This document shows positions 36,435 through 40,834 of a stretch of DNA of 64,000 nucleotides, one piece after another. The translations under genes were made by a program, and so were the position numbers. The notes under the pieces were generated by a model. The model worked only from the letters and a program-made list of their open reading frames with translations. It made no database searches and had not been told where the DNA came from. The stretch lies in assembly GCA_017622845.1 (NCBI GenBank), contig JAGAQJ010000074.1, positions 44,541 to 108,540 of the forward strand. Reading direction: 5' to 3'. The DNA comes from Lachnospiraceae bacterium. Its GTDB lineage: Bacteria; Bacillota; Clostridia; Lachnospirales; Lachnospiraceae. The stretch's first letter is position 1; each line of letters starts with the position of its first letter.

Positions 36435-37017
36435 TTATCCCGGCTCTGAAATTCTGGACACGCCGACAAAGATTTCAGATACCTTATACCATGTGGGATA
36501 GTCAACAATGCCCGAAGCAGGAAGTCCAAAGATGCGCTGAAAAGTGCGGACTGCATCGGCAGTTGCGCTTCCATAGATGCCGTCTTCGGTAATGCGCGGC
36601 AGGGCAGGATAGTTCTGTGCGATTCGGTTTAACTGCTGCTGGAGCTGCAGAACTTTCTGGCCGGAGGAGCCGATTGTCAGGTCATAGCCGGGCCAGGAGG
36701 AGGGAACGCCTGATATATATGTGGTAGAGTTAATATACATATCGCTTCCGTAGTAGTAGTGTATAATTTCAATCGGCGTGTACCCCTGGTCGCCCAGGTA
36801 TTTGCTTCCCCACTGAGAGAGTCCGTAACAGGTGGTGCGGTTTCCGTCACAGTAAGAGGTAAATATCGGCTGGCTGACTCCCGGACGTGAGAGAAAGTTC
36901 GAAAAGACAGAGTCTACGATACGGCTGATATTCTCATAAATATTTCTGCCGTATATCCACTTTTGGTCATAGGCAGTGGAGGAGGTAATCGTGAAGTCAT
37001 AGCCTTGGTTGCGGTAC
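36435..37017 (-). pseudogene. sleC: C-terminal part of an interrupted sleC-like spore cortex-lytic gene
   Basis: This part encodes about 190 residues. It covers the C-terminal half of the SpoIID-like lytic domain (GYDFTITSSTAYDQKWIYG, then CYGLSQWGSKYLGDQGY) and a peptidoglycan-binding domain (SSGQKVLQLQQQLNRI, then TEDGIYGSATADAVRTFQ). In clostridial SleC these modules cut spore cortex during germination. The frame runs on into the mobile element up to about 37115 with unrelated residues. It has no start of its own with a ribosome binding site. The missing front half lies at 40070-40763. It is inactive while the element is in place. Confidence 0.85.
37007..37017 (-). repeat. left attachment-site core
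   Basis: GTACCGCAACC on the minus strand is repeated exactly at 40070-40080. The codons Tyr-Arg-Asn of sleC fall within it. Confidence 0.85.
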
Positions 37018-37237
37018 AGCGAGACGAATAGTTTCAAGTAAAGCCCTTGGTAGGAAAAAGAGGTATTTCTGTAGGGAATTGGTGGTTTATCCGGAGGATA
37101 GAAAATATAAGACAAGTGGACAAGCCTATGAGGTCATTGCAAAATAGTTAAAATACAGGGATAAATTGTTATGGATTTTGAGAACCATAGGAAGTATAAT
37201 AAAGAAAAGGCAGGATGCGAAAGGAGTTGGTTAAGAC

Positions 37238-37348
37238 ATGGGTATAGCAGAATTGACAGCAAAAATCGAGAGTTTGTCGGAGGAAGATTACAACATGGTC
37301 AGTGAAGATACCCTAGTGGAACAATTCTCTGAATCCATTAAAAAGTGA
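37238..37348 (+). pseudogene. short antitoxin-like relic
   Basis: A 36-codon frame (MGIAELTAKIESLSEEDYNM at its start) is preceded by AAAGGAG. The opening resembles the start of small antitoxins of the RelB/YefM sort, and then it stops early. A second 23-codon frame (37350-37421) follows directly and could be the shifted remainder. It looks like the worn front half of an antitoxin ahead of an intact pair. A TATAAT at 37195-37200 may be the -10 box of the module. Confidence 0.4.
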
Positions 37349-37425
37349 TATGGGAGCAACAAAACCTGCCAGAGAAGTGTCAAAGAGCATGAGGGAACTT
37401 TTGACAGCGAAAGGAGCGTAGATTT

Positions 37426-37632
37426 ATGAGTACCGCAAAACAAATAGTAATGAATGAACTTTTAAATATATCGGATGACATACAGGACGAATTTGAGATT
37501 TTGGAAAGTTTATATAAAATGGTAAAGTTAGAGCAGAGCCGAAAGTCTGCCAGAGAAGAGGGAACACTGACTACAGAAGAGGTCAGAGCACATTTTGCAA
37601 GAAAGCATGAAGAGGATGGAGTGCTTGCATGA
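37426..37632 (+). CDS. antitoxin of a ParE-type toxin-antitoxin pair
   Basis: The 68-residue acidic, helical protein (MSTAKQIVMNELLNISDDIQ, later TTEEVRAHFARKHEED) is placed just before a RelE/ParE toxin and overlaps it by 4 bases (ATGA). This size, charge and order are those of a type II antitoxin. AAAGGAG lies ahead of the ATG. It probably stabilises the mobile element that carries it. Confidence 0.75.
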   Translation: MSTAKQIVMNELLNISDDIQDEFEILESLYKMVKLEQSRKSAREEGTLTTEEVRAHFARKHEEDGVLA

Positions 37633-37919
37633 GAGTAAGGTGGACACGATTTGCATTAAAAGACCTTGATGATATAGAGAACTATATTGCATTAGACGAC
37701 GTAGGCAGGGCGGCAGATTTTGTTGGCGAATTAATTGATTTGGGTGAATCTTTAGAGTTTAATTGGGAAAGAGGAACACAGGCAAAATGGACGAAAGATA
37801 CTTCTATTAGAGAACTTTATTATCATAATTATACGCTTATATACGAAGTTCTGGAAAATGAGATACAGATTCATGAAGTTCATAATAACGCAAAAATGAT
37901 TCGACATTTTAATAGATAG
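37629..37919 (+). CDS. RelE/ParE-family toxin
   Basis: The 96-residue protein shows the ParE/RelE pattern: an N-terminal strand and helices (VRWTRFALKDLDDIENYIA), then RELYYHNYTLIYEV and a C-terminal VHNNAKMIRHF strand. ParE members poison gyrase and RelE members cut mRNA; which applies here cannot be told. Overlap with the antitoxin gene by ATGA and the terminator 11 bases downstream define a two-gene module. Confidence 0.82.
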   Translation: MRVRWTRFALKDLDDIENYIALDDVGRAADFVGELIDLGESLEFNWERGTQAKWTKDTSIRELYYHNYTLIYEVLENEIQIHEVHNNAKMIRHFNR

Positions 37920-37930
37920 TTTATTTATGG

Positions 37931-37958
37931 GACAGCATCAATATGGTGCTGTCTTTTT
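37931..37958 (+). terminator. terminator of the toxin-antitoxin module
   Basis: GACAGCATC pairs with GGTGCTGTC (one wobble pair) over a 5-base loop, followed by five T. Confidence 0.85.
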
Positions 37959-38104
37959 CTTGCACTTCGTACATTTCACAGGCAAATCATTGGCTATTCC
38001 CACCACAGACACAGCATTTTTTCAGCGTTAATATGTATATTTCGTTCAGAGGCCCCCTTTTCTTTATTTTACCATAAAAGAGAGAGATGAACATATTTTT
38101 TGTG

Positions 38105-38125
38105 CATTTTTTAAACACGCTCTAG
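38105..38125 (-). repeat. solitary MITE end inside the element
   Basis: On the minus strand the 21 bases start with CTAGAGCGTGTTT and continue with an A run ending in TG. They match the left terminal repeat of the 149-bp element at 61663 at all but one position. No partner end is seen within the 220-base gap. Confidence 0.6.
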
Positions 38126-38139
38126 GAACAGTATTTATC

Positions 38140-38430
38140 ATGGTAGAATATCAAAAGGCACTGTCACATAAAGATATAAAAAGCTGTAAGAGCAAGTGTG
38201 ACAATATGGAGAATATGGAAACATATTCGGAAGAAGTAGAAATTGGAAAGAAAAAAGTGCGAATCACTTTAGAATTTCCATACACAGTTGACCCTAAGGA
38301 TGCAGACAGATTTGAGCATATGCTGAAAGAAGTTTATCTGAATAAAATTCAAAAAGGGTCTTTACAAAGCAATTCCCAAGCGGTATCATTCCCAACCCCA
38401 AAGGGGAAAGGAGGAATGAGCCATGAGTAA
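38140..38430 (+). CDS. small accessory protein ahead of the recombinase
   Basis: The product has up to 96 residues; an internal ATG at 38206 is the other likely start and gives 74. It holds a predicted beta-hairpin and helix (EVEIGKKKVRITLEF, then DADRFEHMLKEVY). Size and position are like the TnpW-type proteins found before serine recombinases in clostridial elements, but I cannot confirm homology. It overlaps the recombinase start by 8 bases, and its last codons supply GGAGG for it, so the two are coupled. Confidence 0.55.
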   Translation: MVEYQKALSHKDIKSCKSKCDNMENMETYSEEVEIGKKKVRITLEFPYTVDPKDADRFEHMLKEVYLNKIQKGSLQSNSQAVSFPTPKGKGGMSHE

Positions 38431-40108
38431 AAAAGTAAGAACCTTACTTCGGGTATCATCCAGACAGCAGTTGCATGATGATGACATTCCGATACAGAGA
38501 GCAGAAGCCAAGCAGTACATAGAAAAACATACAGATTGGGTATTTGACAAAGAGTATCTGGAAAAAGGTATCTCTGCATATCACAATGTAGTGGAGGACA
38601 GAGAGGTACTCCAGGATATCATGCAGGATGCCAAGAACGGAGAATTTGACATTTTGTTAGCATACATGTCAGACCGAATCGGCAGACAGGAAGAATACAG
38701 CTTCTATGTAGCAGAATTGAATCGTCTGGGGATAGAGGTCTGGACGATTAAAGACGGTCAGCTAAAGACAGAGGAGCATATTGATAAGCTTCTCAACTAT
38801 ATCCGCTTCTGGCAGAACGAGGGAGAATCCAAGAAAACAGGGATGCGCGTGCATGATACCATGGTAGAAATGGTAAAGGATGGGAAGTTTGTAGGTGGAA
38901 AAGCACCCTATGGATACAAATTAGTCCTATCGGGAGAAATCAGCAACCATGGAAGAGCACTTCACAAGCTTGTAATTGTTTCCAAGCAGGCAGAGGTGGT
39001 ACGTCAGATATATTCCTATGCGGTGAATCAAGGAATGGGATTTCAGAAGATTGCAAATACGCTGAATGAAAATGATATTCCTGCTCCAATTTTAGAAAAG
39101 TGGAAAAGTGGGACAGTAAGAAGTATTCTGATGAACCCTATTTATATGGGCTATATCGCATATAACAGAAGAAAAGACGGACACGCAAATTACACGAGAC
39201 TTGACCGGAAGGAATGGACATATGCAAGAGAACAAAATACAGAGATTATGATTGTGCCACAGGAAACTTGGGAAAGAGCACAGGAGATACGCGAAGCAAG
39301 AAAGAAGCGAATCAATGAATCCAGGCAGTCTACAAGTGATTTGTACATGGAGCAGCACAATGTGCCATTTTCAACACGAGGAAAACTGGCACTCACAGGC
39401 TTGGTTTATTGCGGGTATTGTGGAAAGAGATTGAAAAACACAGGGTATGCAAATCATTGGACTTGCAAAAAAACAGGAGAAGAAAAAGTTTCTTATGCAG
39501 GGCGCTATGGCTGTCCGAATCATTGCAAGCCAAGAAACTCCTACTCACAGGAATATTTAGAATCCATTGTGTTTGCAACAGTAGAAAGTTATCTGGAAAA
39601 TCTCAAAAAGTTTGATATATCAAGTGAAATCGAGGAAATGCAGTCACAGCAAAGCAAAAGTATAGCACGGGAAATGAAAGACCTTGAGAAAGAGATAAAA
39701 AAGCTGGTGTCAGATATAGCAATACTGGAAGAAAAGCTGCCGGATGCAATTCGGGGAGATTTTTCCTTTAGTGTAGATAAGTTATCTGCAATTATCAAAG
39801 AGAAAGAGTCAAGGAAAAATGAGATAGAGATTACAAAGAAAAGACTGAAAAAGCAGTTAGAAGAGATTTCAGTACAGAGTGAGGAAATGAAGCAGTTTAT
39901 AGACCTCATGCCAAAATGGAATGAACTGTTTCAAGAATCCGATACTCAGACTAAGCAGATGATGATTTCTACCTTAGTTGATAAGATTATCGTAAAAGAT
40001 GAAGAAATCACCATAAAATTTAAGATTCGTCTGGAGGAATATATGTATAAATCTTTACCTGAATGTGGTGGTTGCGGTACCACTCCGTGTAAACGCGGTT
40101 CAGTGTAA
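38423..40108 (+). CDS. large serine recombinase
   Basis: The 561-residue protein has the resolvase catalytic domain (LLRVSSRQQ with Ser12 as the likely nucleophile, and LAYMSDRIGR), a recombinase domain (GGKAPYGYKLV to NPIYMGYIAYNRR), a zinc-ribbon with paired Cys (VYCGYCGKRLKN and later WTCKKTG) and a long coiled coil (about 395-500). This is the set used by phage-type integrases to insert and excise. The last nine codons (553-561) lie past the attachment core, in sleC sequence read backwards. In the excised circle the frame would run into the left end of the element. Confidence 0.95.
   Translation: MSKKVRTLLRVSSRQQLHDDDIPIQRAEAKQYIEKHTDWVFDKEYLEKGISAYHNVVEDREVLQDIMQDAKNGEFDILLAYMSDRIGRQEEYSFYVAELNRLGIEVWTIKDGQLKTEEHIDKLLNYIRFWQNEGESKKTGMRVHDTMVEMVKDGKFVGGKAPYGYKLVLSGEISNHGRALHKLVIVSKQAEVVRQIYSYAVNQGMGFQKIANTLNENDIPAPILEKWKSGTVRSILMNPIYMGYIAYNRRKDGHANYTRLDRKEWTYAREQNTEIMIVPQETWERAQEIREARKKRINESRQSTSDLYMEQHNVPFSTRGKLALTGLVYCGYCGKRLKNTGYANHWTCKKTGEEKVSYAGRYGCPNHCKPRNSYSQEYLESIVFATVESYLENLKKFDISSEIEEMQSQQSKSIAREMKDLEKEIKKLVSDIAILEEKLPDAIRGDFSFSVDKLSAIIKEKESRKNEIEITKKRLKKQLEEISVQSEEMKQFIDLMPKWNELFQESDTQTKQMMISTLVDKIIVKDEEITIKFKIRLEEYMYKSLPECGGCGTTPCKRGSV
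40070..40080 (-). repeat. right attachment-site core
   Basis: This is the second exact copy of GTACCGCAACC (minus strand). It lies inside both the recombinase reading frame and the sleC frame on the opposite strand. Confidence 0.85.
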
Positions 40109-40763
40109 ACGACATGATAACTAAGGTGTTCGCATAGATGGTGTTTTCGGGCCATGTGGCATAGATTTCCGAGGAGACTACATTTTTAATGTAATCGGTA
40201 TAGCGAACATAGTAGTTTTTCGCTGTGGGGTCCTGAGGCACACCGTCATGAACAATGATATATTCGGGTATCACGACGCGGCTTAATACAATTTCACCGG
40301 ATTCGTCCATAGGCTTGATTTCATCCTCAGGTATTTTGGGAGGATATTCGCCGTATAAAGTGTGGTCAGGTATCACGACCGTTTCCTCAGCAGGCGCCTC
40401 CGGAGATTCGATTTCTATCGGAGTCATTGTTACCGGCTGCACAGCAGTGACGTCGGGAAGGATTTCCGTACCGGAAATAAATACCGGTTCATAGCCCGGC
40501 GCACTGACAGAGATATTGTATTCTGCGTAGGGCATTACTTCGCTTGGCTCGGTACTGTAGGAAAGGCTCGGAGCCGGAAGGGAGATGGTAGAGGTCTGAC
40601 CGGAATCATTGGTCGTGAGTGTCTGAACCACAGAATCAGGGTCTCCGGAATAGGATATTGTGATTGTGGCATTATTTATGGGGATAAAGCCCAGCGACGA
40701 GTTAACGTTGATGGTTAATTCTCCCGAGTAGGCGGGGGTCTCCGCTTTGATAATATTAGACAT
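40070..40763 (-). pseudogene. sleC: N-terminal part of the interrupted sleC-like gene
   Basis: About 231 residues of the front half remain. They include an Ig/carboxypeptidase-regulatory-like domain (INNATITISYSGD, YNISVSAPGYEPVFISGTEI), a Pro/Glu-rich linker (GEYPPKIPEDEIKP), and the start of the SpoIID-like domain (IIVHDGVPQDPTAKNYYVRY, VVSSEIYATWPENTIYANTL, SFTLNRVYTEWYRN). The order is that of clostridial SleC proenzymes. The start ATG (40763) has AGGGG six bases upstream. Past the core the frame runs 15 codons into the recombinase 3' end and stops. Confidence 0.88.
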
Positions 40764-40765
40764 AA

Positions 40766-40807
40766 AAATCCCCTGCATATGTTTTTAATAATATATGCAG
40801 GGGATTT
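40766..40807 (-). terminator. hairpin that ends the upstream gene and covers the sleC ribosome site
   Basis: A perfect 15-bp inverted repeat (AAATCCCCTGCATAT with its complement, 40793-40807 and 40766-40780) is followed on the minus strand by T residues and then the sleC ATG. Its 3' arm contains the AGGGG site of sleC. Confidence 0.75.
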
Positions 40808-40834
40808 CTTTGTGTTACTTTTCAGATATAAAAA

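What the first reader, a model, noticed from the sequence alone, without database searches (positions are those of the whole stretch)
36435..40763. Skin-like serine-recombinase element splits a SleC-type spore germination gene
The front half (40070-40763) and back half (36435-37017) of one cortex-lytic gene lie on the minus strand on either side of a 3.06-kb element. The 11-bp core GTACCGCAACC is present at both ends (37007-37017 and 40070-40080). Joining at the core keeps the frame (Glu-Trp-Tyr-Arg-Asn-Gln-Gly-Tyr-Asp) and gives 421 codons plus stop, the expected size of SleC. Serine-recombinase elements that interrupt sporulation genes and leave in the mother cell (skin in sigK) are established. 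I know of no established example in a cortex-lytic gene, so this could be a new switch on germination.
Basis: partly seen in the sequence, partly recalled or inferred. Interest (0 to 1): 0.88.

Follow-up and report, generated by a model that had tools for sequence, protein, structure and literature searches.

The report
Excisable element splitting germination gene sleC
In this gut bacterium the one gene found for a main spore-germination enzyme is cut in two by a small piece of mobile DNA that carries its own cutting-and-joining enzyme, and many relatives carry different such pieces at the same spot, so the gene is probably rejoined when the cell makes a spore.

Summary
A 3,063-bp element with a large serine recombinase (LSR) splits sleC at 37007-37017/40070-40080. 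Joined, the gene has 421 codons; both halves match solved SleC (PDB 9h68). No second sleC was found in the genome; its best sigK candidate is uninterrupted.

This is a recurrent system. Of 38 genomes in the genus, 12 have sleC split at the same Trp-Tyr codons and 22 have it contiguous. Of 27 recombinases found at E<=1e-60 (own included), 22 lie beside a sleC half, in the genus and 11 other genera. Recombinase and sleC trees disagree, so the elements are mobile. Bounded elements span 2-20 kb; the smallest holds little beyond the recombinase and a small upstream ORF. Such an ORF, present in 19 of 19 loci checked, is a candidate directionality factor. Split halves stay open and constrained, and sleC has a sigma-K-type promoter.

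Best reading: a skin-like element that excises in the mother cell and restores sleC. Excision is inferred, not shown; mother-cell control of the recombinase rests on weak motif evidence. The kind is known (skin, gin, yin); my searches found no report of sleC as target. Cousin recombinases interrupt an M23 peptidase gene.

The parts
40071..40778 (-). front half of sleC (start ATG 40763, alternative in-frame ATG 40778)
   Evidence: PDB 9h68_A E 9.5e-62; weak Pfam SpoIID match, below cut-off
36435..37016 (-). back half of sleC with stop: rest of the SpoIID-like domain and PG_binding_1
   Evidence: PDB 9h68_A E 6.6e-65; Pfam PF01471 6.7e-16 on the longer ORF
40070..40080 (-). core repeat at the front-half end of the element
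37007..37017 (-). core repeat at the back-half end of the element
37018..40069 (.). body of the sleC-intervening element (3,063 bp with one core)
38423..40108 (+). large serine recombinase, 561 aa; last codons and stop lie in sleC antisense DNA
   Evidence: Pfam PF00239, PF07508; phrog_95 integrase 1.6e-83
38140..38430 (+). small ORF, 96 aa, directly upstream of the recombinase: candidate recombination directionality factor
   Evidence: a small ORF in this place in 19 of 19 loci checked, 14 of them aligned (mean column identity 26%); predicted strand-strand-helix (pTM 0.33)
37629..37919 (+). ParE/RelE-type toxin of a toxin-antitoxin pair (cargo)
   Evidence: Pfam PF05016 6.2e-10
37426..37632 (+). 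probable antitoxin (by position only)
   Evidence: overlapping ORF upstream of the toxin; no family match of weight
40790..40815 (-). sigma-K-type promoter of sleC (AC-N16-CATATATT)
   Evidence: this pattern is upstream of 9 of 9 front halves examined; sleC of C. difficile is sigma-K dependent (PMC3789822, passages)
38074..38099 (+). possible sigma-E-type promoter of the small ORF and recombinase (ATA-N15-CATATTTT)
   Evidence: suggestive only

Best explanation
This is a sleC-intervening element. A small mobile element inserted, through its own large serine recombinase, at one fixed site in sleC: within GTA of the Trp-Tyr codons TGG-TAC. The insertion cuts the SpoIID-like domain, so neither half should work alone. 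During vegetative growth sleC should be silent and the split costs nothing. During sporulation the mother cell is expected to make the small upstream protein and the recombinase, which cut the element out precisely and restore the 421-codon sleC in time for sigma-K transcription. The mother cell is terminal and the forespore chromosome keeps the element, so the element is still inherited. Shown here: the insertion, the frame-keeping core, restored coding capacity, one fixed site used by many different elements, the recombinase with a small upstream ORF, constraint on split genes, a sigma-K-type promoter. Inferred: that the small ORF is the directionality factor, that excision happens, and that it is confined to the mother cell.
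For: Exact in-frame reconstitution. In the genus 12 of 38 genomes are split at the same codon pair with no stop reported in any half found, whereas 2 of 22 contiguous genes carry an in-frame TAG. Pairwise dN/dS of back halves is the same with a split partner (median 0.028, 73 pairs) as without (0.027, 36 pairs), and at most 0.077 in every computed split-contiguous pair of either half; G023-G061, both split, differ by 44 synonymous and 2 non-synonymous changes (143 of 435 back pairs computable, the rest saturated). Of 27 recombinases at E<=1e-60, own included, 22 lie beside a sleC half. Small ORF upstream of the recombinase in 19 of 19 loci. In G375 a roughly 1.96-kb element in a SleC-like paralogue holds little beyond this pair. 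sleC promoter of sigma-K type in 9 of 9, as in C. difficile. No second sleC in this genome. Splits also occur in assemblies of 1 and 3 contigs (G379, G159).
Against: No excised junction or circle was seen; no reads are available. Sporulation-sigma motifs upstream of the small ORF are weak: CATANNNTA within 100 nt in 4 of 18 loci against 0.55 expected (3 of 500 random draws reach it), but I tried many patterns and some (sigma-K type, CATA[CT]NNT within 100-150 nt) show no excess. The host is a 76-contig assembly of unknown sporulation ability; its best sigma-K-like gene scores below the model cut-off, as in all 38 genus genomes. Insertion ages are unknown, so part of the purifying signal may predate insertion, and a shared insertion in G023 and G061 is not shown. 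The genome also has two SleB/CwlJ-family (PF07486) proteins, so SleC need not be the only cortex lytic enzyme. The small ORF is poorly conserved (26% mean column identity) and has no structural or family match.
Confidence: 0.75

Rival explanations
1. A site-specific mobile element that uses sleC only as a docking site. Excision is rare or tied to transfer, not to sporulation, so restored sleC appears in a random minority of cells (bet-hedging at most).
For: Elements are mobile: recombinase and sleC trees disagree, and the split label needs 9 changes on a 36-row sleC tree, no clear clustering against shuffled labels (mean 10.3; 127 of 500 as low). Cargo differs between elements. Sporulation-sigma motifs upstream of the small ORF are weak. 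The yin element of PMC10747680 is excised in part of the population at all times sampled (passages).
Against: Constraint on both halves; a nearly cargo-free form of about 2 kb exists; the target carries a sigma-K-type promoter.
Confidence: 0.17
2. The insertion simply inactivates sleC and carriers manage with other cortex hydrolases; there is no functional excision.
For: Two SleB/CwlJ-family proteins in the genome; three genus genomes have no close sleC at all (G004, G007, G019).
Against: No stop reported in split halves; dN/dS of 0.077 or less in computed split-contiguous pairs; repeated insertion at a frame-restoring site with open recombinase genes.
Confidence: 0.06
3. Assembly or binning artefact.
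For: Many of the genomes are fragmented, and several splits fall on two contigs.
Against: The split lies on one contig in G000, G003, G013, G023, G159, G237, G375 and G379, of which G379 is a one-contig and G159 a three-contig assembly; different DNA in each at the same site.
Confidence: 0.01
4. The two halves act as separate proteins without excision.
For: Each half is an open frame with possible starts.
Against: The cut lies inside the SpoIID-like domain. In the split loci listed the back-half ORFs differ in length (146 to 226 aa), several starting well inside the conserved region.
Confidence: 0.01

Closest known systems
skin of sigK (B. subtilis, C. difficile)
   Same: Serine-recombinase element splits a mother-cell gene and precise excision restores it; in C. 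difficile a separate small RDF (CD1234, 72 aa) gives mother-cell control (PMC5025042, passages).
   Different: Target is sleC; the best sigK candidate here is uninterrupted. No phage gene other than the integrase-type recombinase was recognised among the element ORFs scanned. The candidate RDF lies directly upstream of the recombinase.
gin of gerE (B. cereus ATCC10987)
   Same: Non-prophage intervening element; GirC recombinase plus GirX of 6.5 kDa; 9-bp core (PMC5595907, passages).
   Different: gin is 28.6 kb with three recombinases; here 3.06 kb with one; different gene and host family.
yin of yabG (C. botulinum V73)
   Same: Intervening element in a sigma-K gene of the germination pathway; YabG processes pre-pro-SleC in C. 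difficile (PMC10747680, passages).
   Different: yin is called a prophage and reported as unique to one strain; the sleC elements recur in many species.
SPbeta in spsM (B. subtilis)
   Same: LSR (SprA) and small RDF (SprB) restore a spore gene (PMC4191935 seen as listing abstract only; also passages of PMC5595907 and PMC10747680).
   Different: Active prophage; different target.

Membership tests
Large serine recombinase | Resolvase catalytic domain, Recombinase domain, Zn ribbon, long C-terminal part | tested here: met
   PF00239 and PF07508 above cut-off; PF13408 below cut-off (22.1 vs 25.3 bits); phrog_95 integrase
SleC | Homology to SleC over pro-region, SpoIID-like domain and PG-binding domain | tested here: met
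Gene-intervening element of the skin/gin kind | Element with its own site-specific recombinase splits a sporulation-related gene, with short direct repeats at both ends | tested here: met
Gene-intervening element of the skin/gin kind | Joining at the repeat restores the full reading frame | tested here: met
Gene-intervening element of the skin/gin kind | Directionality factor encoded in the element | tested here: inconclusive
   Small ORF in the same place in 19 of 19 loci; no family or fold match; not compared directly with known RDFs
Gene-intervening element of the skin/gin kind | Excision occurs and is specific to sporulation | not testable with these tools
   Needs cells or reads
Gene-intervening element of the skin/gin kind | Mother-cell sigma control of recombinase or RDF | tested here: inconclusive
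   Weak motif excess, not in every pattern tried
Prophage / skin proper | Phage genes, or insertion in sigK | tested here: not met
   Four element ORFs scanned: only the recombinase (phrog_95) and the toxin (phrog_2455, unknown function) match PHROGs, no structural gene; target is sleC; best sigK candidate open
TnpW (Tn4451-type small protein; resemblance recalled) | Match to PF14202 | tested here: inconclusive
   No PF14202 match of the small ORF at E<=1, nor of four other small ORFs found upstream of such recombinases; PF14202 rang nowhere, controls included

The most novel reading that the evidence does not exclude
Lachnospiraceae carry a family of self-excising 'DNA introns': a dedicated recombinase clade plus a small partner, in minimal form about 2 kb, that repeatedly and independently occupies one codon pair of sleC (and, with cousin recombinases, a site in an M23 peptidase). 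The cell's ability to hydrolyse its own spore cortex with SleC then exists only after a programmed DNA rearrangement in the mother cell.
Probability: 0.5. Interest if true: 0.86.

Novelty: new variant of a known kind. Interest (0 to 1): 0.74.

Why it matters
If true, a cortex-lytic gene of the germination pathway comes under DNA-rearrangement control, and this is common in gut Lachnospiraceae: 12 of 38 genomes in one genus and scattered species in other genera. It explains how unrelated small elements can sit in a conserved spore gene without loss, offers a set of recombinases with a common attachment site, and makes it testable whether germination of gut commensal spores depends on element excision. 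It also warns that annotation may call sleC a pseudogene in such genomes.

Tried and rejected
Assembly artefact: rejected because the split lies on single contigs in eight genomes, one of them a one-contig and one a three-contig assembly.

Single ancient insertion: rejected, since the recombinase of G028 is 89% identical to that of G005 while G028 sleC groups with G025, whose recombinase is 36% identical to it.

Opposite insertion orientation in the genomes where the recombinase abuts the back half: considered and set aside. The same kind of attachment half-site (TGAAACTAT-type in G000/G013/G197, AACCC..AAT-type in the other group) stays on the back-half side, so the recombinase gene, not the site, seems to have changed sides (read by eye).

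TnpW identity of the small ORF: no support. Fold search of the small ORF: no match at E<=0.001; model pLDDT 66.8, pTM 0.33. Viral contig origin: none found in one scan. Close phage or plasmid integrases: best about 30% identity.

Rows dropped: the front halves of G016 and L053 aligned at 5% identity. They, and the outgroup rows L071, L075 and L083, were left out of dN/dS; all five were still in the tree, where G016 and L053 form a long branch. Of 435 back pairs 143, and of 378 front pairs 147, gave a dS; the others were saturated and dropped. In the family scan G153, G241, G184, G129 and G252 have short frames but are not split: front runs straight into back at contig ends in G153, G241, G184, G129, and G252 has a frameshift. 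In some searches the start of the small ORF of G015 was set by eye, and G237 was not included.
Full report
OBSERVATION. The window is part of a 3.6-Mb, 76-contig assembly. The 80 best relatives kept by a sleC search of named genomes are almost all labelled Lachnospiraceae, mostly metagenome assemblies, and include Lachnospiraceae bacterium COE1 (capped list). Joined at the core, the gene has 421 codons plus stop. An uninterrupted orthologue (L045) matches the solved SleC chain 9h68_A over residues 18-422 at 8e-136. The window's two halves match adjacent parts of the same chain. The break falls inside the SpoIID-like domain: SpoIID/LytB matches lie on both sides of it in the orthologue.

THE ELEMENT. 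It holds a ParE/RelE-type toxin with a probable antitoxin, a 96-aa ORF, and a 561-aa large serine recombinase. No phage structural gene was recognised among these four. The recombinase ORF ends inside sleC, using sleC antisense DNA for its last codons and stop; in a circle it would read on to 595 codons. Where the recombinase abuts the front half in the genus, the ORF runs into sleC in 9 of 10 elements, not in G003. Where it abuts or lies nearest the back half in other genera, the ORF runs into sleC in 6 of 8.

CENSUS IN THE GENUS. Searches with the back half and the front half over 38 genomes give: 12 split (G000, G003, G005, G006, G012, G013, G015, G023, G024, G025, G028, G061), 22 contiguous, 1 undetermined (G011, contig end), and 3 without a match (G004, G007, G019). 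Limits: for G006 only the back half reached the threshold, but the end of the front half is readable at the start of its recombinase contig; for G015 only the front half with the recombinase was found; for G061 the recombinase was not seen and the front contig ends inside the core, the split being read from the element end beside the back half. No stop is reported in a split half. Two contiguous genes (G016, G060) carry a TAG. The junctions read share GTA of TGG-TAC; the shared core is as short as GTA in G003 and 11 bp or more in several others.

WIDER FAMILY. Of 200 genomes (199 genera), 115 had a sleC match at E<=1e-58; of these G237, G197, G098, G088 and G159 are split outside the genus. 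Recombinases at E<=1e-60 number 13, own included, and 14 more; at most 23 and 3 candidates a genome were scored there, so some may be missed. Of these 27, 22 lie beside a sleC half: the window's own, 10 in the genus, and 11 in 11 other genera (front: G281, G409, G251; back: G197, G375, G159, G424, G237, G088, G098, G379). For G379 the recombinase is about 1 kb from the back half, for G024 the link is to the back half, and in G375 the gene is a SleC-like paralogue (front 32%, back 51% identical). Five do not lie beside sleC: G012:C8, G046, G166, G214 and G380, which are the least similar (30-34% identity). Among the 80 named contigs, 15 look split: L047, L048, L051, L052, L054, L056, L061, L062, L063, L067, L100, L103, L104, L111, L121. 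Bounded elements measure about 1.96 (G375), 3.06 (G000), 3.4 (G237), 4.6 (G013), 4.7 (G003), 9.4 (G159), 18.1 (G379) and 20.1 kb (G023).

MOBILITY. The 11 recombinases compared in the genus (one partial) are 34-89% identical to each other, while the split sleC back halves are 85-92% identical to the window's. The sleC tree and the recombinase tree disagree; the split label needs 9 changes, about as scattered as shuffled labels (mean 10.3; 127 of 500 as low) (quick tree, with one badly aligned pair forming a long branch).

SMALL ORF. A short ORF just upstream of the recombinase was found in 18 of 19 loci by script and in the nineteenth (G237) in an ORF list. G028, G025 and G098 were not checked. 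Fourteen were aligned: mean column identity 26%, with a K-x-V-x-L-E-F stretch followed by a predicted helix; the rest were judged by eye, and G003 fits least well. It is kept in the 2-kb element of G375. This is why I call it the candidate directionality factor. Short ORFs of similar look also lie upstream of the cousin recombinases of G012:C8 and G166 (by eye).

SELECTION AND REGULATION. Median pairwise dN/dS of back halves is 0.028 (split-contiguous, 73 pairs), 0.024 (split-split, 34) and 0.027 (contiguous, 36). For front halves the medians are 0.041 (66 pairs), 0.041 (23) and 0.061 (58). Most pairs were saturated and dropped, median dS of those kept is 1.5-2.0, and insertion ages are unknown, so this shows constraint but cannot date it. 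All 9 front halves examined have AC-N15..17-CATANNNT upstream, the form that PMC3789822 describes for sigma-K (passages), where C. difficile sleC is sigma-K dependent. For the small ORF the evidence is weak: one sigma-E-like site in the window (38074-38099), and an excess of the shared -10 form in 18 loci that is clear for CATANNNTA (4 vs 0.55 expected) but not for every variant tried. The best sigma-K-like gene of the window's genome is uninterrupted (235-aa frame), though below the model cut-off as in all 38 genomes.

LITERATURE. Searches of the held library gave no report of an element in sleC. PMC10747680 (passages) names sigK, spsM, spoVFB, gerE and its own yabG as interrupted sporulation genes. 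PMC5595907 and PMC5025042 (passages) describe recombinase plus small RDF as the working pair. Word searches in PMC6907783 and PMC10083194 found no mention of sleC. Preprints and most subscription papers are not in the library.

MECHANISM AND VERDICT. The anatomy matches known intervening elements in the points that could be settled here; proof of excision and of mother-cell control is missing. Most likely the element leaves in the mother cell and sleC is restored; the mother cell dies, so the element loses nothing. I rate this a new variant of a known kind: a new target in the germination pathway, a recombinase group largely dedicated to it, and recurrence across a family.

Noticed in passing
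L181:6242-8909 with L200:7574-8161 (G012:C8); L168:2015-9712 (G166:C13): Cousin recombinases (30-34% identical to the window's) sit in a different gene, an M23 peptidase (PF01551), split near Gly-Thr-Pro, with elements of about 16 kb (G012) and 6.4 kb (G166) and front and back halves both present. Whether this gene belongs to sporulation was not tested.
   Followed up: partly
L191:6025-6501 (G000:C56); also G002, G005, G007, G012, G016, G019, G022, G060, G061: The same M23 gene has a short open frame (148-214 aa against 338-396) in the window's own genome and nine others of 30 with a match; in G061 this may only be the contig end. Breaks fall at two or more places in the gene; the nearby DNA of G002 and G007 carries three distant serine recombinases in a row. 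In G000 no front half was found within about 9.5 kb upstream.
   Followed up: partly
window 40770-40803: A palindrome CCCCTGCATAT...ATATGCAGGGG followed by T's overlaps the sleC -10 element and start region and is seen, with small changes, in 9 of 9 front-half upstream stretches printed; it looks like a terminator with the promoter nested in it.
   Followed up: no
L100, L103, L104, L121: Four contigs share one element end at the sleC junction (CATAGGTTTCTCTGTATCG), and three of them (L100, L104, L121) have a small resolvase-like ORF nearby; no close relative of the window's recombinase was found in the DNA held.
   Followed up: no
window 37239-37410: Short broken-looking reading frames upstream of the toxin-antitoxin pair, possibly remains of another antitoxin gene (read by eye).
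   Followed up: no
L178 (G061:C217) end: The contig with the front half ends inside the core itself, which could be an assembly fork between joined and split forms, or chance.
   Followed up: no
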